From assembly GCA_958296175.1 (NCBI GenBank), contig OY282448.1:2046472-2110471 (forward strand): DNA of 64,000 bases, read 5' to 3'. The DNA is from an uncultured Chloroflexota bacterium. Its GTDB lineage: Bacteria; Chloroflexota; UBA11872. The stretch's first letter is position 1. Each line of letters starts with the position of its first letter. Below the pieces are notes generated by a model, which was not told the DNA's origin, did no database searches, and worked only from the letters and a program-made list of their open reading frames with translations. Of this stretch, positions 32,648-42,340 are shown piece by piece. The translations under genes were made by a program, and so were the position numbers.

Positions 32648-33112
32648 TTATTCGCCGGCCGGGTCCGTCCAAAAGGCCGCAGGCAGGGGCCAATCTGAAG
32701 GGAGCAGGTCGTCGGCGGGCGGGTCGGACAACCAGCCGGTTGGCCAGCGCAGCGGCCGCCGCAGCGCCGCCGCCGGGCCGTAGCCGTGGTCCAGCAGCGC
32801 CGCCAGCGGCCCGCAGGTCAGCAGCCGCCCGACGGCGCCCGGCCGCGCGGCGCGCACGGCCGCCCGCACCGCCGCGCCGCCGTGCAGCACGCGGCCGTCG
32901 GTTTGCACCAGGTGCACCGACCGACCACGCCGCCGCGGGGTCATCGTGGACAGCAGCGGCCCCGCGCTGGGCGCGGTCATGTCCAGCCGCGCCACGCGCC
33001 GCCCGCGGTCCAGCCGCGCCAGCAGGCCGGCGCTGCGGCGGCACGACACGCAGCCGCCGTCGTACAGCACGATCGGCCGCCGCGCCGCACCGTTCCCGCC
33101 GGGCGAATTCAT
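32648..33112 (-). CDS. DCC1-like thiol-disulfide oxidoreductase (DUF393)
   Basis: The 154-residue protein from ATG 33112 has the family motif IVLYDGGCVSCRRS near the N-terminus, with the CxxC at residues 21 and 24. It is followed by LDMTAPSAGPLL and a DGRVLHGGAAVRAA block that is typical of DUF393. Thioredoxin-like folds of this group are predicted to have redox activity, but the partner is not known. A further open frame reaches 33316 but has no family features. The next gene upstream, on the other strand, is the large helicase. Confidence 0.85.
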   Translation of the reverse strand: MNSPGGNGAARRPIVLYDGGCVSCRRSAGLLARLDRGRRVARLDMTAPSAGPLLSTMTPRRRGRSVHLVQTDGRVLHGGAAVRAAVRAARPGAVGRLLTCGPLAALLDHGYGPAAALRRPLRWPTGWLSDPPADDLLPSDWPLPAAFWTDPAGE

Positions 33113-33276
33113 TCCCGAAGTGTAGAGCCGCGCCCGGCGCCTGACGGTCCGCGGCGTACGCAGCCGCGGCGCCGCACGGCCGGCGGGGAGAGGATGGCGT
33201 CGAGACGTTCCGACCGCCCGCGCCGCCGCGCCGCCGCTGGCCGGCCCGTCGGGAGCGCGGCCCTCGCGCGGCCCGC

Positions 33277-33306
33277 GTGACAGTGCGCCGCGCCGGTACT
33301 TATGCT
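33277..33306 (+). promoter_or_regulatory. candidate sigma-70 promoter of the large helicase gene
   Basis: GTGACA (33277-33282), 18-bp spacer, TATGCT (33301-33306). Both hexamers match consensus only in part. It lies 50 bp before the GTG start, in the only gap upstream of the gene. Confidence 0.4.
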
Positions 33307-33356
33307 GGCGGCGCATGCGTCCACACGCCCAATCCTGATGTCAGCGGAGCGCCGCC

Positions 33357-36300
33357 GTGGCTGAACGTCGAGACGCCGCCCAGCCGGCGGCCGCGCGCGC
33401 CGCCGCGCCCGCCGCCGATGCCGCGGCCAACGGGATCGACGCGTCCGTCGCAGGGTGGCAGAGCCAGCTGTTGCAACTCAACCGCCGCAACAACCTGCTG
33501 TACTTCAAAAGAAACGTGGTTCCCACAGACCCGCAGTCTCGCCGCCGGTCCACCATCCGCTGCGTCCCAATCACCGGGTTCGACCCTGACGGGATCGACG
33601 ACCACCTGCGGCGCGCGCGCAATGGCAGAACCTTCGAATACGCACAACGCCGCCGACGGCGGAAAGGGGACGGCCAACAATCGCCGGCCAACGGGCCCGC
33701 ACAGCCCGGCGTGGAGGTCGAGCCCGGCGAACTGCAAACAGGCGTCGATCCCCTGGCCTTGCAACCAGTGCTGCTGCGCTTCATGCGCAAAGAACGCGAA
33801 TGGATGGAAGAGCAGGGCATCAACGTCCTGTTCCTGGCCGTCGGCTTTCTGGAATGGATCGACCAGGAACGCGAGCGCGCCGTGTCGCCGCTGCTGCTGC
33901 TGCCTTGCGACCTGTGGCGGTCATCGCCGCGCGACCCCTTCGTGCTCAAACGCGCAGACGACGACGCCGAGGCCAACGCCACCCTGCGACACAAGTTGGG
34001 CGAGTTCGGCCTGGAGCTGCCCGAGTTCGACCACGCGACTTACGCGCAATATCTGGACGACGTTCGCGATTGCATTCGCGACCGCGAGGGCTGGAGCGTT
34101 ACCGACGACGTCGTGCTGTCCACCTTCCAGTACACCAAGCTGGCCATGTGGGAAGACTTGCAGCGCATGCGCGACCAGGGCATCGCTCATCCGCTGGTGC
34201 GCCGGCTGGCCGGCGAGCAGCCGGACCTCGCCGCAGCCGCGGCGTCGAACGGCGCGTTTCCGACCGAGGCCGAACTTTCCGGCGGCCGTCTGGACGACCT
34301 GCTCGACCTGCGCCAGGAGTTCGCCGTCCTGCCCGCCGACCACAGCCAGCTGCGCGCCGTAGCCGCCGCCCGGCAAGGCGGGAACCTCGTCATCCACGGC
34401 CCGCCCGGCACTGGCAAGAGCCAGACCATCGTCAACGTCATTGCCAACCTGCTGGCCCACGGCAAGCGCGTGCTCTTCGTCAGTGAAAAGAGCGTGGCGC
34501 TGGACGTCGTCAAAGACCGCCTGGAACAGGAAAACCTGGGCGTTTTCTGCCTGGACATGCACAGCGAACGCGCCAGCAAAACCTCGGTCTACGACCAACT
34601 GCAGCAGTCGCTGGACGACGAACGCAAGGTCGGCCGCCTGGAGTACAGCTACGAAGGTCTGGAAGCCCGCAGAACCGCGCTCAACGACGTCGTGCGCGCG
34701 CTGCACGAACCGCGCCCCCCGCTGGGCCGCAGCGTGTACCAGATGCACGGCGAGTACGCACGGCTGCGGGACCTGCCCGATGTGGAGTTCGAGACGCCGC
34801 CCGCCGCGCAGCTGGACGCGGCGCTCCTGCAGGAGATCGGCACCCTGACCGAACGCATCGCGCGCCGCCCCGACGAGTTTCGGGACCTGGACACCTCGAA
34901 ATGGCGCGCGCTGAAGGCGCAGACCGCTTCGCTCGGCCTGGCGGACCGCATCCGCCGCGACGTGGACGCCGCCCGGCAGGCCGTCCAGAGCGCGGCTGAC
35001 ACCCTTGCGCACCAGGCCAGCATGATGGGGGTTCGAGCGCCCGAGGACATGCGGGACGCGCCGTTGCTGCTCGACCTCGCCCGTCATCTGAACGGCAGAC
35101 CGACGGTGCTGAAACTCTGGCTCGACAAGGACGCGCTGTCCCGCTTGCGCCGCGTCGCCGGCGAGCAACAGTCACAACAACGAGAAGCCCGCGCGTTGGC
35201 CACGCAGGTCGGCCGCGCGTTCGGCGGTTCCATTCCCGAGATCGATTACCAGCAGCTATCCCTCGATGTTCGCCCCACGCCGACCGAGGTCGACGCGCTG
35301 AATCGAGCGTTCGGGAAAAAATGGCCGCACAGGCTCCTTCCCGACCCCGCCGCACTCCTGGACGTCACCGCGCAAGCCGAAGCCGAGGCAACTGCCGCCG
35401 TAACCGCGCTCGACCACCTCGCGGCCACGCTGGAGCGCGACCCAATGTCTGCGTCATGGCAGGAATCGAAGCAGACGCTGGAGATTGCCCAACGCCTGGT
35501 CGACGTAGGCGTCGTACCGGAGGCATGGACCGACCGTGCACGCCTCTCGGAATTCAAACGGCTCGCAAACGCTGCTGGCGTTGCTCACAAGGCGTTGGCG
35601 AAGGCCGAGCGTCGGCTTTTTGCCTACCATGATCAGGACATTGTGGATGAGGTCGATCGGGCGATGCTTACTCGCTTTCGCACCGATCACCAGAATTGGG
35701 TGCGGCGCTCGCTGGTTGGCCGCAGCGCCTATCAGCGCGATGTGAAGCTGCTGCGCAGCTACACCCCGACGCGGCAAGGGTTGGCCTTCGCCGGTTGGCA
35801 CCAGGTGGTCGAACACGCGATCGAGATTCAATCGCGGCGCCGGCAGTGGGAATCGGCGTACGCGGCCGTCGAACCCATCCTCGACCGGCATGCACGTGCG
35901 CGTGAGACGGATTGGACGCAAGTCGAAGACCACATCTCGCGTACGGAACGTTTGCTCGGCGACTGGCCGTGGGATCCATCGAGGTTGCGCGTGGTGCTGA
36001 CTCGTCGTGACGAGTTGCAAGCGTTGGAGACCGCATGGCAGGACGCGCGGGCAAAACTCCAGACGCTGGAAGATGTAGTGCGCCGACGTTACGAGGAACG
36101 GCTGGGCCGCGATTGCGACGGGCCAGCAGTCATCGCGGCCGACCTTCGGCAGGCCCTGGCGCCGCTCGAACGGCTGACGACGGCCGCGGCCCCCGTCATC
36201 GAGCGTCTGGTCGATATCCCTGGCGGTTGGGCGGACTTGCAGAAGCTGATCGACAAGACGGCGCTTCTCAGAAACATCGAGCGCGCGGAACGTGAGACCA

Positions 36301-39300
36301 GAAACGTGTTGCAGCATGACTTTGGCGCGTACTTCCAGGACCGGGATACGGACTGGGAAGCCGTGTCGAATGCGCTCGAATGGTGCCGGGAGCTCCTCGA
36401 CCTGGTGCACGGACGCCCGAGCGAACGCCTGCGCAGTCTGGTGTGCGCAGGCGACCCCGAGTTCGATGCGGACGCGTCGGCGAAAGCGATCGAGTCCTTG
36501 CAAGCTACGTATCCGCGCGGCGTGCAGCGCCTGGACGAGAGATTCGACCTCGCCATGCTCCCGTGGTCGTCTTGGGAACTTGCGCCGTTCGCGGACCTGT
36601 CCGATTGGCTCGAATCGATTTATCGGGAGGCCGACGACGCGGCGAACTGGGTCGAGTTCACACAGGCGTGCGGCGGGCTGGACCGTAAGCTCGGTGAAAA
36701 CGCCGTTCGACACATCCGGGCCGCAACCGAGGACGCCGGCATGGTTCCAGGCATCGTGCGGCGGCGGCTGTTCGCGGCGTGGCTCGACGCCGTGTTCCGA
36801 CAGGACCCGCGCCTGCGCGACTTTACCGCGCCCGACCACGAGGGGTTGCGCAGCGAATTTCGGACCCTGGACCAGCAGCTTACCCAGGTGATGCGCGAGC
36901 AGGTGCGCACAAAGCTGTTTGCCAAGTATCCAAGCAGCGGAACCAGTCTGACACGGGGCGGACAGCTTGGCGTTTTGCGCGGCGAGCTGTCCAAGCGACG
37001 CCGGCAGATGTCCGTGCGGCGCCTGCTGGCGAGGGCCCCGCTGATAATTCAAGCCTTGAAGCCATGCTTCCTGATGAGTCCGTTGGCCGTGAGCCAATAT
37101 CTGGAACGGAGCGGCGCGGCCAGCGCCAACGTCGGCTTCGACGCTGTGATCTTCGACGAGGCTTCGCAGGTGCTGCCCGAAGACGCGGTCCCCGCCATTT
37201 CCCGCGCCGGGCAGACGATTATCGTGGGTGACCGCAAGCAATTGCCGCCGACGACGGTCTTCCAGCACCGCTACGAGCACGAAGACGACGACGATGACGG
37301 CGGCGACGACATCGACTGGTTCGAAGGGCGCGAGAGCATTCTCGACGTCATGGTCGGGATGGTCGACAGCGGCGCCGTCGAGCACTACCTGGACGTGCAC
37401 TACCGCAGCCGGCACGACAGCCTGATCCGTTTCTCGAACCACCACTTCTACGAAGACCGCCTGCTGACCTTTCCCAGTCCGCAGAACACACCCGAGCTTG
37501 GCGTGCGCAGCGTCTATCTGCCCGAGGGGCGCTACGACGCCGGCGGCTCGCGCACCAACCGGGTCGAGGCCGAGAAGACCGTCGCACTGGTCTTCGAGTT
37601 GATGCGCACACGCCCGGCCAGCGAAAGCATCGGCGTCGTGGCGCTGTCGCGGGCGCAGGCCGACTTGATCGAGACTTTGATCGATGAAGCGCGCCTGGAC
37701 GCCCCCGAGTTCGAAGACCGCTTTGCCCGCGGACAGGAGGAACGCTTCTTCGTCAAGAACCTGGAAAACGTGCAGGGCGACGAACGGGACCACATCCTGC
37801 TGTCCATCGGCTACGGACCCACAGACTCCGGCCGGGTGTACAACCGCTTCGGCCCGATCAACAACGATGGCGGCGAGCGGCGTTTGAACGTGGCCGTCAG
37901 CCGCGCGCGCCGCTCCATGACGGTGGTGCATTCGCTCACGCCCGAGGACATCACGGCGGAGAGCCGAGGAGCGCGGCTACTCAAGCGCTATCTGGAGTTT
38001 GCGCGCAATCCCGACACCGCCATCGAGCAAAACCTGACCGTCGACGCGCAGGCCGAGACGGAAAGCCCTTTCGAGGAAGCCGTGCGCCGAGCCTTGATCG
38101 AACGCGGCCACCGGGTCGACGTACAGGTTGGCGTGGCCGGCTACCGCATCGATTTGGGCATCCATGCCGAGGACGGGAGCGGCTACGCCTTGGGGATCGA
38201 GTGCGACGGCGCGACCTATCACAGCGCCCCGGCCGCGCGCGACCGCGACTGGCTGCGCCAGTCGGTTCTGGAAGGTCTGGGCTGGAAGATTCACCGCGTC
38301 TGGTCGCGCGCCTGGATTCAGAACCCGGAACGCGAGATCAAGGCGATCGAGCAGTCCCTGACGGACGATCCTGCTGACCCAGCTCCTGATGACGAACCGG
38401 TGGTCGTTCGTCCTAGACATGCGGACTTCGACAACGACGCAGACTTCGACAACGACAGTGAGGCGGACTCCGACAATGACCGTGAGGTGGATGGCCGATT
38501 CGACTCCTACCAAATTGCAGATCTCTCGCACATCCCTGTTGGGTCGGATCTCCGCAGCGAGAACCCGGTAACGTTGCGTGATCTGGTCATCGCCGTCGTA
38601 AATGTCGAGGGTCCAGTACACGTGGATTTGGTAGTCGATCGCATTCGGCTGCATTGTGGTATCGGGAGGGTGCGGGGGAGCACCCGCGACCTAGTTCACC
38701 AAGCCATGGATGCGGCGGTTTACAGAAAAGACCTGGAATGGGTGCCGGAGGAGAACCTCGGAAGACTGGTTCGGAAGTCGTTCCTTGCAACTTCCGATCA
38801 GCTAGAACATCCTCGTCTACGGGTACCGGATGAAAATAACGCATTGCGCCGAAAAATCGAACACATCGCACAGATTGAACTGAAGTTGGTCGTGCTGGCT
38901 TGCGCACAGTTGCTGTATGGAGCAGAGCGTGACGATCTGATCAAAGAAACAGCACGCCAACTCGGTTTCCAACGAACAAGCGCTGGTATTTCAAGTCGGA
39001 TTGATCAAGCTATCGATCAACTACTGGAAGACAATGTACTCACAGATAGCGATCACGTCTTGACTAGTAATCGAGCTTATTCGCTCCAAAGTAATGATCA
39101 AATCGTCCCTCATGTTTCTCGGAGGAATACTAATGAAAGAGCGGGGCATGCTGAAGAGGGCACATCAAATTCTATAGTTGTTGAAAACAGTAAGTTTCGT
39201 ATTGGAGAGCGCAATGAAACGCACTGGAAATTCTCCTATCAGGTCAATCTGAGGAATAATAGCAAGCACGGTTACACGTGTGATTTGAGTGTCAAGTTTC

Positions 39301-39770
39301 TCAACAGCGATGGGTTTGTAGTAGGTGATCATTTCGCATCCCGTATTATTGTGCCAGCAAATGGGATAAAGAATTATACTGATTATGTTCGGATCGGTAC
39401 TGAAGAAGCTAAAAATGTATCTTCTATGCATGTAGAAGTAGCATACGTTCGTATGCGAGTTGAAGGACCTGGCTTGTCCAAGGCAACAAATCCGCGCATT
39501 GAAGTCAATGACAGTAAGTTTCGTATTGTGGAGCGCAATGAAACGTACTGGAAATTCTCCTATCAGGTCAATCTGAGGAATAATAGCGAGCACGGTCACA
39601 CATGTGATTTGAGTGTCAAGTTTCTCGACAGCGATGGGTTTGTGGTGGATGACCATTTCGCATCCCGTATTGTAGCGAGAGAAAATGATATGAAGCGCTA
39701 TAGAAATTACACTCTAGTCAGTGTAGGAGAAGCAATCAAGATTGTATCTATGAATGTAGAATGTTATTGA
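33357..39770 (+). CDS. DUF4011-SF1 helicase-PD-(D/E)XK nuclease-DUF3320 protein with two Ig-like FxLYD-type repeats
   Basis: The 2137-residue protein starts at GTG 33357, eight bases after GGAG. Domains in order: DUF4011 (about 30-330); an SF1/UPF1-like helicase split by a long helical insert, with Walker A GPPGTGKS (348-355), DEAS (1267-1270), GDRKQLPPTT (about 1290) and motif VI NVAVSRARR; a Vsr-like MTES_1575 nuclease whose catalytic residues are in YRIDLGI and IECDGATYH (about 1600-1620), followed by GWKIHRVWS; a DUF3320-like segment (about 1730-1870, VEGPVHVDLVV..); and two 108-residue Ig-like repeats from about 1940 to the end. The helicase-nuclease architecture is known from defence-type genes; the Ig-like tail is not expected in one. 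All helicase and nuclease motifs look intact. From about 38.5 kb the DNA becomes AT-rich. The gene stands alone, next to the convergent rbfA end of a core operon. Confidence 0.93.
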   Translation: MAERRDAAQPAAARAAAPAADAAANGIDASVAGWQSQLLQLNRRNNLLYFKRNVVPTDPQSRRRSTIRCVPITGFDPDGIDDHLRRARNGRTFEYAQRRRRRKGDGQQSPANGPAQPGVEVEPGELQTGVDPLALQPVLLRFMRKEREWMEEQGINVLFLAVGFLEWIDQERERAVSPLLLLPCDLWRSSPRDPFVLKRADDDAEANATLRHKLGEFGLELPEFDHATYAQYLDDVRDCIRDREGWSVTDDVVLSTFQYTKLAMWEDLQRMRDQGIAHPLVRRLAGEQPDLAAAAASNGAFPTEAELSGGRLDDLLDLRQEFAVLPADHSQLRAVAAARQGGNLVIHGPPGTGKSQTIVNVIANLLAHGKRVLFVSEKSVALDVVKDRLEQENLGVFCLDMHSERASKTSVYDQLQQSLDDERKVGRLEYSYEGLEARRTALNDVVRALHEPRPPLGRSVYQMHGEYARLRDLPDVEFETPPAAQLDAALLQEIGTLTERIARRPDEFRDLDTSKWRALKAQTASLGLADRIRRDVDAARQAVQSAADTLAHQASMMGVRAPEDMRDAPLLLDLARHLNGRPTVLKLWLDKDALSRLRRVAGEQQSQQREARALATQVGRAFGGSIPEIDYQQLSLDVRPTPTEVDALNRAFGKKWPHRLLPDPAALLDVTAQAEAEATAAVTALDHLAATLERDPMSASWQESKQTLEIAQRLVDVGVVPEAWTDRARLSEFKRLANAAGVAHKALAKAERRLFAYHDQDIVDEVDRAMLTRFRTDHQNWVRRSLVGRSAYQRDVKLLRSYTPTRQGLAFAGWHQVVEHAIEIQSRRRQWESAYAAVEPILDRHARARETDWTQVEDHISRTERLLGDWPWDPSRLRVVLTRRDELQALETAWQDARAKLQTLEDVVRRRYEERLGRDCDGPAVIAADLRQALAPLERLTTAAAPVIERLVDIPGGWADLQKLIDKTALLRNIERAERETRNVLQHDFGAYFQDRDTDWEAVSNALEWCRELLDLVHGRPSERLRSLVCAGDPEFDADASAKAIESLQATYPRGVQRLDERFDLAMLPWSSWELAPFADLSDWLESIYREADDAANWVEFTQACGGLDRKLGENAVRHIRAATEDAGMVPGIVRRRLFAAWLDAVFRQDPRLRDFTAPDHEGLRSEFRTLDQQLTQVMREQVRTKLFAKYPSSGTSLTRGGQLGVLRGELSKRRRQMSVRRLLARAPLIIQALKPCFLMSPLAVSQYLERSGAASANVGFDAVIFDEASQVLPEDAVPAISRAGQTIIVGDRKQLPPTTVFQHRYEHEDDDDDGGDDIDWFEGRESILDVMVGMVDSGAVEHYLDVHYRSRHDSLIRFSNHHFYEDRLLTFPSPQNTPELGVRSVYLPEGRYDAGGSRTNRVEAEKTVALVFELMRTRPASESIGVVALSRAQADLIETLIDEARLDAPEFEDRFARGQEERFFVKNLENVQGDERDHILLSIGYGPTDSGRVYNRFGPINNDGGERRLNVAVSRARRSMTVVHSLTPEDITAESRGARLLKRYLEFARNPDTAIEQNLTVDAQAETESPFEEAVRRALIERGHRVDVQVGVAGYRIDLGIHAEDGSGYALGIECDGATYHSAPAARDRDWLRQSVLEGLGWKIHRVWSRAWIQNPEREIKAIEQSLTDDPADPAPDDEPVVVRPRHADFDNDADFDNDSEADSDNDREVDGRFDSYQIADLSHIPVGSDLRSENPVTLRDLVIAVVNVEGPVHVDLVVDRIRLHCGIGRVRGSTRDLVHQAMDAAVYRKDLEWVPEENLGRLVRKSFLATSDQLEHPRLRVPDENNALRRKIEHIAQIELKLVVLACAQLLYGAERDDLIKETARQLGFQRTSAGISSRIDQAIDQLLEDNVLTDSDHVLTSNRAYSLQSNDQIVPHVSRRNTNERAGHAEEGTSNSIVVENSKFRIGERNETHWKFSYQVNLRNNSKHGYTCDLSVKFLNSDGFVVGDHFASRIIVPANGIKNYTDYVRIGTEEAKNVSSMHVEVAYVRMRVEGPGLSKATNPRIEVNDSKFRIVERNETYWKFSYQVNLRNNSEHGHTCDLSVKFLDSDGFVVDDHFASRIVARENDMKRYRNYTLVSVGEAIKIVSMNVECY
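39187..39671 (+). repeat. 324-bp-offset direct repeat in the helicase tail
   Basis: 39187-39347 and 39511-39671 are about 93% identical (11 mismatches in 161 bp by my count). Both encode KFRI.ERNET.WKFSYQVNLR. Each lies at the start of a 108-codon unit in an AT-rich stretch, so this is a recent duplication of the FxLYD-like domain. Confidence 0.9.
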
Positions 39771-39976
39771 TACGATATAATGCCCACACGTTGCCTATTG
39801 TGACTCAACATTGTGCTCCACGACAGCATATTTCACACCCACAAGCCTATGCTAGAGATTGATCTTTGCGACTTGATATCGACCACGACCGTGGACGCGT
39901 GCGGGTTCGGAGTTCTGATTGTGCATACGCCCTTCCCAGTTCGGAGTCTATTACACTGACAAAGGCATAGTGTTCC

Positions 39977-40003
39977 GAATCAGCGAAGCTGATTCACAGC
40001 TTC
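39977..40003. terminator. two mutually exclusive overlapping hairpins between helicase and rbfA
   Basis: GAATCAGC (39977-39984) pairs with GCTGATTC (39988-39995), while GAAGCTG (39985-39991) pairs with CAGCTTC (39997-40003). Both cannot form at once. They lie in the 39771-40095 gap between convergent genes, which is otherwise AT-rich and in which I see no gene. A perfect TATAAT at 39776-39781 has no -35 partner. Confidence 0.5.
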
Positions 40004-40095
40004 GTCGCGAGTATAAGTTCAGCAGCGGTGCTTAGATGCTGCGTGTTTCCAACTAACGCTAGTCCCTCCGCGGCACTTGCCTGCCGTGCGTTACT

Positions 40096-40431
40096 TCATT
40101 TCCCAGGCGGCGGCAATCCAGCTTCTGGGGCAGGCATCATCATTTCGGGGTCGAGTTGGAAGTGGATGGCGGGAACGCGGTACATGTGGATGAGGGCGGA
40201 GAGTTCGCGGCGGACGTAAGGGGCGGCGCGTTGCAGGGCGTGCACGGACTGGTGCGCGTTGGCCGTATCGCCCAGCGGGGTGACGAAGACCACCGCGCGC
40301 TGTAAATCCGGCGAGACCGAGGTGCGGCGCACCGTCACCAGGCCGATCTCGGGGTCGGACAGACGGCCGATGAGTTCGCTGATGTCGCGCGTGATTTGAG
40401 CTTCGATGCGCTGCGCGCGGCGCGAGCTGAT
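40096..40431 (-). CDS. rbfA: ribosome-binding factor A
   Basis: The 111-residue protein begins with SSRRAQRIEAQITRDISELIGR and shows SDPEIGLVTVRRTSVSPDL, then FVTPLG and RRELSALIHMYRVPAIHFQLD. This is the normal length and pattern of RbfA, a KH-fold factor that matures the 5' end of 16S rRNA on the small subunit. The only codon that fits the conserved N-terminus is ATC (40431-40429), seven bases after a strong GGGAGG. No ATG, GTG or TTG exists in frame between the infB stop and this point. A later GTG would remove 30 residues of the conserved start. It is the last gene of the nusA operon. Confidence 0.92.
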   Translation of the reverse strand: MSSRRAQRIEAQITRDISELIGRLSDPEIGLVTVRRTSVSPDLQRAVVFVTPLGDTANAHQSVHALQRAAPYVRRELSALIHMYRVPAIHFQLDPEMMMPAPEAGLPPPGK

Positions 40432-40447
40432 GGCGGCGCCTCCCGGC

Positions 40448-42340
40448 CTAGGGCAGGCGTTCTTCGGTGTGGTGGGCCTCGACGACGTCGGCGAGTTGGA
40501 TGCGCGTGCCGGTTTCGATGGCCAGCCCGCAGTCGAAGCCCTCGCGCACCGAGTCCACCTCGCTGGTGAAGCGGCGCACGGTGAGGATGCGGCCGGCGCC
40601 AATTTCCTCGCCGCCGCGCAGGATGCGCACGGCCGCGCCTTTGTACACCTGGCCAGACAGCACCATGCCGCCCACGATCTGGCGCGCGCGCTCGGCGCGG
40701 AACTCGCCGCGGATTTCGAGGCGCCCGTCCACCACTTCCACTTCTTCGGGCTTGATCACGCCCTTGAGCGCTGCGTCCACGTCGTCGATCAGCTCGTAGA
40801 TCGTGCGGTAGGTGCGCACGTCCACGTTCTGCCGGTCGGACTCGGTGGCCGCGGTGGCGTCCACGCGCACGTTGAAGGCCACCACCAGACCTTTGGCGGC
40901 GGCGGCAAGGTTGACGTCGGACTCCGTGACCGACCCCACGCCTTCGTAGATCACCATGGCGCGGGCGCGTTCGTCGCCCAACTGGTCGATGGAGGTGACC
41001 ACGGCGTCCACGGCGCCGGCCGTGTCGGCTTTCACCACCAGGTTGATCTGTTGCAGGCGGCCGGCGGTCATCTGGGCGGCCAGGGATTCGAGGCTGAGGC
41101 GCATGGCCTGGTCGCCGCCGCCGCGCGCGGCCGTGCGGTCCTGGCGCCGCCGCGCCTTGCGCGTGCGAGGCACGGCGCGCAGGGAATCGCCCACGACGGG
41201 CATGGAATCCAGCCCCATGACCTCTACCGGCGTGGAGGGGCCGGCCGAGGTGAGCCGTGCGCCGCTGTCGTCCATCAGCGCGCGCACGCGGCCGTTGATC
41301 GCGCCGGTGGTGATGGTGTCCCCAACGGCCAGCGCGCCGCGCTGCACCAGCACGGTGGCCAGGGGTCCCTGGCTGCGGTCGAGCCGCGTCTCGATGACCG
41401 TGCCTTCCGCCGGCCCGTCCGCCGCCGCGTGCAGTTCTTCCAGCTCGGCGGTCAGGTTGATGTATTCCAGCAGGTCGTCGACGCCCTCGCCGTTGAGCGC
41501 GGACAGGGGCACGGCCACCACGTCGCCGCCGAAGTCTTCCACCACCACCTCGTGCTCGGTCAGCTGTTGCAGCACGCGGCTGGGGTTGGCCGCCGGCAGA
41601 TCGATCTTGTTGACGGCCACGATGAGAGGCACGCCGGCGGCCTTGGCGTGGCCGATGGCTTCCACCGTCTGCGGCATCACGCCGTCGTCGGCGGCCACCA
41701 CGACCACGGCGATGTCCGTCACCCCCGCGCCGCGCGCGCGCATGGCGGTGAAGGCTTCGTGGCCTGGCGTGTCGATGAACGTGATGGAGGCGCCGTCCAG
41801 GGCAACCTGATAGGCGCCGATGTGCTGCGTGATGCCGCCGTATTCGCTGTCGACGACGTTGGTCTGGCGGATGGTGTCCAGCAGGGTGGTCTTGCCGTGG
41901 TCGACGTGGCCCATGACGGTCACCACCGGGGCGCGCGGCTCGCCGGCGGGCGGCGCGGCAGCGTCGGCCTGGGCGGCCGTGGGTTCGGAAGCTTGCGGAG
42001 GCGCCGTCGGCGCGGCCGCTTCCTCGGGCGCGTCGACGATGGCAACGCCCAGGTTCTGCATGACCGCGCGCGCCGTGTCGCGGTCGATGGCGGCGTTGAT
42101 GGTGGTCAGCACGCCGCGGTTGAGCAGCTCCATGATGATGTCGGTGGGCGGAACCGCGGCGCGTTCGGCAATCTCGCCGATGGAGGCCGAGGCTGGCATG
42201 GGAACTTCGCGCAGCTTGACGACCGGCGGCGGCGGGGGGGCCTCGGTGCGCTCCGCGGCTGCGGGCGCGGCGCGCTGCGGCCGGCGGCGGGCATGCGGCC
42301 GCGGCGGCGGCCGGCGGCGCGTGCGGCGGCGACGCGCCAC
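40448..42340 (-). CDS. infB: translation initiation factor IF-2
   Basis: This 630-residue GTPase brings initiator tRNA to the ribosome. The basic N-terminus (about 45 residues) is very short. The IF-2 N-subdomain follows ([26 protein letters not shown]), then the G1 loop GHVDHGKT (144-151), DTPGHE, NKID and the C-terminal domains IV-VI, ending in [17 protein letters not shown]. It starts at GTG 42340, just after the ylxR stop, in the middle of the operon nusA-ylxR-infB-rbfA. Its stop is 16 bp before the ATC of rbfA. Confidence 0.97.

What the first reader, a model, noticed from the sequence alone, without database searches (positions are those of the whole stretch)
33357..39770. Helicase-nuclease giant with an Ig-like FxLYD-type tail
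A single 2137-residue protein joins DUF4011, a complete SF1 helicase, a Vsr-like PD-(D/E)XK nuclease and a DUF3320-like domain. This layout is known from defence-type genes that act on foreign DNA or RNA. It then carries about 200 extra residues forming two Ig-like repeats of the kind found in secreted or membrane-attached proteins. I know of no established member with such a tail. It may be a recognition or oligomerisation module for a phage protein. It stands alone in the genome, with its own promoter, next to the end of a core translation operon, a good insertion place. If it is a one-gene defence system, this tail would be a new sensor.
Basis: partly seen in the sequence, partly recalled or inferred. 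Interest (0 to 1): 0.85.

Follow-up and report, generated by a model that had tools for sequence, protein, structure and literature searches.

The report
Phage-defence helicase-nuclease with Ig-like tail
This is a large one-gene bacterial defence protein of a known kind that probably cuts foreign nucleic acid, and its tail end carries two antibody-like domains normally found on the outside of the cell, probably to change what it recognises or binds.

Summary
One intact 2137-residue frame joins DUF4011, a UPF1-like SF1 helicase, a Vsr-type MTES_1575 nuclease and DUF3320. Residues 1936-2137 are two Ig-like beta-sandwiches with weak FxLYD similarity.

The enzyme is a known kind: it matches PADLOC candidate PDC-S37 and, below their cut-offs, NCBIfam anti-phage ProA and Hhe. 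The tail is new. It is absent from both same-genus relatives, which stop at residue 1904, from all 80 fetched relatives, and from plasmid and phage relatives. Elsewhere the domain is an exported ectodomain on small membrane proteins of the same genus. Here it has no membrane segment.

Two further results support a defence role with an exchanged recognition end. The two genus relatives are 88-99% identical in nucleotides in most blocks of DUF4011 and helicase-2/nuclease, but about 41-69% in the post-nuclease end and most of the central insert. One relative fills a chromosomal site that is empty in some sister species and holds other defence systems in others.

Verdict: a new variant of a known kind. 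The sensor role of the tail is plausible but unproven.

The parts
33357..39770 (+). Whole gene, 2137 aa, ProA/PDC-S37-like helicase-nuclease with Ig-like tail
   Evidence: ORF; PADLOC PDC-S37 1275 bits; NCBIfam ProA 1192 bits (cut-off 1500)
33465..33998 (+). DUF4011 (residues 37-214)
   Evidence: Pfam PF13195, 87.3 bits
34338..34898 (+). Helicase RecA1, AAA_11 (residues 328-514), Walker A GPPGTGKS at 348
   Evidence: Pfam; motif; UPF1/SMUBP-2 structures match by sequence
34794..36716 (+). Fast-evolving insert between the two helicase halves (residues 480-1120)
   Evidence: Mean aa identity 0.38 against 0.72 in RecA2 and nuclease over 246-266 family pairs; mostly 46-68% nt identity between G003 and G010
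37155..37928 (+). Helicase motif II onward and RecA2, AAA_12 (residues 1267-1524)
   Evidence: Pfam PF13087; motifs DEAS, GDRKQLPP, QGDE, NVAVSRA
38070..38360 (+). Vsr-type PD-(D/E)XK nuclease MTES_1575 (residues 1572-1668), IECDG at 1614
   Evidence: Pfam PF18741 117.5 bits; motif; architecture described in PMC3710099
38385..39068 (+). Post-nuclease variable module: linker, DUF3320 and the region expected to be the second winged helix (residues 1677-1904)
   Evidence: DUF3320; 41-69% nt identity between G003 and G010 beside 88-97% just before it; GC falls 0.575 to 0.484. Winged-helix assignment taken from PMC3710099, not modelled here
39069..39161 (+). Linker (residues 1905-1935), after the point where same-genus relatives stop
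   Evidence: Alignment
39162..39443 (+). Ig-like repeat 1 (residues 1936-2029)
39486..39767 (+). Ig-like repeat 2 (residues 2044-2137)
38385..39799 (.). Low-GC end of the gene, 39-58% GC by module in a 70% GC window
33089..40136 (.). Segment absent next to the two flanking genes in the sister species; holds this gene and flank fragments only
   Evidence: blastn homology to sister loci ends at 33088 and resumes at 40137
39850..39909 (+). Short remnant like the start of the acetamidase-like gene that follows the same left flank in sister species
   Evidence: 60 nt at 77% to G000 L166 10049-10108 and 35 nt at 80-83% to four sister loci
32648..33316 (-). Left neighbour, DCC-like thiol oxidoreductase gene (flank)
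   Evidence: name by sequence motif only
40096..40602 (-). Right neighbour, rbfA, with an altered 3' end (flank)

Best explanation
It is a one-gene, horizontally moving anti-phage or anti-plasmid enzyme of the ProA/PDC-S37/Hhe kind. The SF1 (UPF1-like) motor is expected to load on foreign or abnormal nucleic acid and translocate, and the Vsr-type nuclease next to it cuts. The post-nuclease end (DUF3320 and winged-helix region) and the large insert between the helicase halves are exchanged between otherwise near-identical proteins, so they are the likely specificity or regulatory parts. In this copy that end is a low-GC replacement extended by a tandem Ig-like pair drawn from the genus's own exported beta-sandwich domain family, now cytosolic. 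The most likely role of the pair is to bind an invader or host protein and so gate the enzyme. Shown: architecture, intact motifs, absence of the tail in relatives, membership of the tail in that domain family, module exchange, defence-hotspot location of a relative. Inferred: nucleic-acid substrate, order of events, and the binding role of the tail.
For: PADLOC PDC-S37 1275 bits to residue 1903, Hhe 547 bits; NCBIfam ProA 1192 and Hhe 784 bits; intact helicase and nuclease motifs. Relatives in only 3 of 13 genus genomes, and in different places. The G003 relative is a roughly 7.06-kb insertion; G004 and G001 have 25-29 nt there, while G006 and G010 carry HEC-01 and G006 also a type IIG RM at the same site. 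G010 and G035, from different families, share 85-92% nt identity over most of the length they have in common (0.77 in the first block), pointing to transfer. G003 against G010: nt identity 0.88-0.99 for residues 1-211 and 1263-1652, then 0.66 at 1653-1670 and 0.41-0.69 after it. Tail repeats: dN/dS 0.49 overall and 0.35 over the first 58 codons, so kept as protein. Ig-like sensor precedents: DruH (PMC13192584), PglZ and DndH (PMC12839542).
Against: The scores are below the curated ProA and Hhe cut-offs, so ProA's activity cannot simply be carried over. Neither of the two closest relatives needs a tail. Exchange of the DUF3320 end does not by itself show that the Ig pair is the recognising part. 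The tail has been seen once only. No phage or plasmid target is known.
Confidence: 0.55

Rival explanations
1. Same defence enzyme, but the Ig pair is an oligomerisation or stability module rather than a recognition module.
For: Ig-like pairs often hold proteins together; the tail directly follows the DUF3320 and winged-helix end, which could set the oligomeric state.
Against: Relatives do without it; it lies at the end that is exchanged between relatives.
Confidence: 0.22
2. The tail is a recent passenger: a read-through fusion of a fragment of an exported-protein gene that does nothing.
For: Seen in one genome; sharply different GC; the same genome carries a free-standing lipoprotein with the domain, 48% identical.
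Against: The two repeats have diverged to 81% nt identity with no stop or frameshift and dN/dS 0.49, 0.35 in the first 58 codons; both repeats are predicted to fold.
Confidence: 0.15
3. The tail is an assembly or binning chimera.
For: GC drops from 0.67 to 0.39 along the gene and the locus is a synteny break.
Against: The GC fall begins before the tail, in the linker and DUF3320 region; the tail's nearest relative is in the same genome and the domain family is genus-centred; a remnant of the expected neighbour is found on the far side. Reads were not available.
Confidence: 0.04
4. A housekeeping nucleic-acid helicase-nuclease with no role against foreign DNA.
For: UPF1/SMUBP-2-like motor; solitary gene beside rbfA.
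Against: Patchy presence (3 of 13 genus genomes), different location each time, insertion with empty sites in sisters, transfer between families, position shared with other defence systems.
Confidence: 0.04

Closest known systems
ProA anti-phage protein (NCBIfam NF058533)
   Same: Matches most of the core in three stretches, 1191.8 bits, reaching model end 1903 at residue 1873
   Different: Below the curated cut-off of 1500, as is the tail-less G003 relative at 1153.5; the model ends before the Ig-like tail
PDC-S37 (PADLOC candidate defence protein)
   Same: Best PADLOC match, 1275 bits, to residue 1903 of 2137 and model position 1545 of 1550
   Different: No tail in the model; PDC is a candidate class, not a tested system
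Hhe (HheA, DUF4011 anti-phage protein; SF1_Upf1 helicase in PMC10925250)
   Same: Same helicase and Vsr-nuclease core, 547 bits in PADLOC and 784 in NCBIfam
   Different: Well below the cut-off of 2000; no HEPN domain among the listed Pfam matches; no tail
MTES_1575-type proteins (PMC3710099)
   Same: SF1 helicase, Vsr REase of the MTES_1575 kind and DUF3320/winged helices
   Different: Those described also bear HEPN and transglutaminase domains; ours has DUF4011 at the N-terminus and an Ig-like pair at the C-terminus
Ig-like parts of DruH (Druantia III) and of PglZ and DndH
   Same: Ig-like beta-sandwiches in defence proteins, fast-evolving or positively selected, proposed as invader recognisers (PMC13192584, PMC12839542)
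   Different: Unrelated host proteins; the similarity is one of fold and proposed role only
Exported Ig-like/FxLYD-like proteins of the same genus
   Same: Same domain family, 48% identity to the lipoprotein in this genome
   Different: Those have a membrane segment or lipobox and should sit outside the cell; here no membrane segment exists

Membership tests
ProA (NF058533) | Whole-protein score at or above curated cut-off 1500 | tested here: not met
   1191.8 bits; G003 relative 1153.5
ProA (NF058533) | Anti-phage activity | not testable with these tools
   Needs expression and phage challenge; no paper describing ProA was found in the held library
PDC-S37 (PADLOC) | Strong match over the model's length | tested here: met
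   1275.1 bits in 3 stretches, best to model 1545 of 1550
Hhe | Score at or above curated cut-off 2000 | tested here: not met
   783.9 bits
DUF4011 / MTES_1575 helicase-nuclease superfamily | DUF4011, SF1 helicase, MTES_1575 nuclease and DUF3320 in this order with intact motifs | tested here: met
   Pfam above gathering scores; motifs
MTES_1575-type with HEPN | HEPN domain | tested here: not met
   No HEPN family among the listed Pfam matches (best 25 of 29 shown)
FxLYD domain (NF038353) | Score at or above cut-off 23 | tested here: not met
   18.1 bits, E 0.0018, two stretches
Ig-like beta-sandwich fold | Confident beta-sandwich with Ig-like structural neighbours | tested here: met
   pLDDT 94.7; GH2 Ig-like domains TM 0.84, E 8.6e-05
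Horizontally moving defence gene | Accessory distribution and shared insertion site with other defence systems | tested here: met
   For the G003 relative: empty sites and other cargo at the same place. For the window copy itself only the accessory segment and synteny break are shown

The most novel reading that the evidence does not exclude
ProA/PDC-S37-type enzymes are modular immune receptors whose post-nuclease end and helicase insert are swapped by recombination like target-recognition domains, and here a secreted Ig-like domain family was brought inside the cell as the new recognition end.
Probability: 0.35. Interest if true: 0.75.

Novelty: new variant of a known kind. Interest (0 to 1): 0.52.

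Why it matters
What triggers the large DUF4011 helicase-nuclease defence proteins is, to my knowledge, not established. The exchange pattern points to two regions that could carry specificity and can be tested by domain swaps between natural near-identical proteins (G003 and G010). The tail gives a third, natural variant with an added protein-binding fold, and shows a possible route by which a surface domain is recruited into cytosolic immunity.

Tried and rejected
Tail of phage or plasmid origin: no match in viral contigs, phages or plasmids. Tail as a general family feature: rejected, absent in 80 relatives, and no plasmid relative covers 80% of the core-plus-tail query. The one close relative with a long extension (L048, 144 residues past the match) has an unrelated end. 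Tail as an ectodomain: no membrane segment anywhere. Meaningful fold of the intergenic DNA downstream: z-score 0.17. Promoter claim: consensus matches only. tRNA genes at the insertion sites: none. Papers naming PDC-S37, FxLYD, or DUF4011 together with DUF3320: none held.
Full report
What is there. The frame 33357-39770 is unbroken and 2137 residues long. Pfam finds DUF4011, AAA_11, AAA_12, the MTES_1575 nuclease and DUF3320, all above their gathering scores. The Walker A, DEAS, GDxxQLPP and motif VI-like signatures and the IECDG nuclease motif are intact. Solved relatives of the motor are SMUBP-2 and UPF1, in line with the published placing of Hhe among SF1_Upf1 helicases (PMC10925250).

The tail. 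Residues 1936-2137 hold two repeats, 64% identical in protein and 81% in DNA. The pair is modelled as two beta-sandwiches (mean pLDDT 77.7, single sequence), and repeat 1 alone reaches 94.7. The nearest solved structures are Ig-like domains of GH2 enzymes. NCBIfam's FxLYD domain is a weak hit below its cut-off. So Ig-like is shown at the level of a confident model, and FxLYD-type is a fair but unproven label.

Is the tail new to this family? In the same genus only three of 13 genomes carry the enzyme. The other two (G003, 63% in the best stretch; G010, 59%) end at residue 1904. Among 80 relatives from the genome collection, most of those that reach the conserved end stop within about 25 residues of it, and none carries the tail. 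Twelve viral-contig relatives were fetched and those with a long match were checked for length only. Of 461 plasmid records with relatives, none covers 80% of the query that includes the tail, and the tail alone finds nothing in viral contigs, phages or plasmids.

Where the tail comes from. A profile of the domain hits 12 of 13 genomes of the genus and none of 28 other genomes of the class. In a 400-genome sample of the phylum it adds one genome, a lipoprotein-like protein with two tandem copies. Almost all of these are small proteins with one N-terminal hydrophobic segment or a lipobox followed by the domain. The closest is a lipoprotein-like ORF in this very genome, 48% identical. The helicase-nuclease has no hydrophobic segment (best 19-residue mean 1.49), so its copy should be cytosolic. 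The DNA of the tail is 39-41% GC against 66% for the core, but the fall begins in the linker and DUF3320 region (57-58%) and continues through the winged-helix region (48%). This fits replacement of the whole post-nuclease end rather than a simple addition, though the donor is unknown. The two repeats differ with dN/dS 0.49 (0.35 in the first 58 codons), so they have been kept as protein.

Modules are exchanged. G003 and G010 are 88-99% identical in DNA over residues 1-211 and 1263-1652. They are 46-82% identical between these blocks, mostly 46-68% across the insert, then 66% at 1653-1670 and 41-69% from 1670 to the end. Such steps within one gene are what recombination leaves. Across the wider family the same two regions diverge fastest: mean identity 0.38 for the insert and 0.47 for the end, against 0.72 for RecA2 and nuclease, in pairs chosen for a similar core. 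That wider pattern alone could be rate variation; the G003/G010 steps could not easily be.

Location. Homology to sister genomes stops at 33088 and resumes at 40137, so a roughly 7.05-kb segment with this gene is accessory. In sisters rbfA is followed by truB and ribF; here truB is about 0.5 Mb away. A 60-nt remnant like the start of an acetamidase-like gene lies between the gene and rbfA, and in sisters that gene follows the left-hand neighbours. The locus is therefore a rearrangement point, and no clean empty site can be shown for it. For the G003 relative it can: a roughly 7.06-kb insert where G004 and G001 have 29 and 25 nt. At that same site G006 carries an AAA and DUF4276 pair (HEC-01), an HNH protein and a type IIG restriction enzyme, and G010 carries another HEC-01 pair. 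The G010 relative sits between 98-nt direct repeats of the end of a fabH-like gene. G010 and G035, of different families, share 85-92% nt identity over most of the enzyme they have in common. These facts make the defence reading strong for the family in this genus.

Function. Established for the parts: SF1 motors translocate on nucleic acid and PD-(D/E)XK domains cut it. Inferred: the enzyme attacks invading DNA or RNA, and the exchanged end and insert decide when. The Ig pair most likely binds a protein. Ig-like domains are proposed invader sensors in DruH, with positively selected residues (PMC13192584), and in PglZ and DndH (PMC12839542). Oligomerisation is the main rival.

Limits. Reads were not available. 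ProA itself was not found in the held literature, so its mechanism could not be read up.

Noticed in passing
L169 5379-11907 (G006:C4) and L170 5468-7409 (G010:C20), against L171 4377-4406 and L172 857-883: A defence hotspot beside mqnC-like genes in this genus: two different HEC-01 pairs, an HNH protein, a type IIG restriction enzyme or the ProA-like gene in different species, empty in others.
   Followed up: yes
L168 5077-8260 (G000:C1 about 2665000-2668300): A lower-GC array of small ORFs, including the tail-domain lipoprotein, mostly preceded by copies of an 87-nt element whose conserved part reads like the T-arm and acceptor stem of a tRNA. A strict pattern finds three copies in this array and none elsewhere in 13 genus genomes. 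Possibly a gene-cassette system.
   Followed up: partly
L036 5423-5520, 12888-12985, 13914-14011: 98-nt direct repeats of a fabH-like gene's 3' end flank the G010 ProA-like gene and a further 1-kb segment, as if cassettes had been added in tandem without a nearby integrase.
   Followed up: partly
L036 5748-12314 and L037: The G010 and G035 proteins carry a second, about 40% identical copy of the residue 666-947 region inside the helicase insert.
   Followed up: no
L048 7206-10082: A relative with a different C-terminal extension of about 144 residues (basic linker and a small unassigned domain), so other tails exist in the family.
   Followed up: partly
L125-L147: A genus-centred, unnamed family of single-membrane-segment proteins with one Ig-like ectodomain, several copies in some genomes, sometimes in tandem.
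   Followed up: partly
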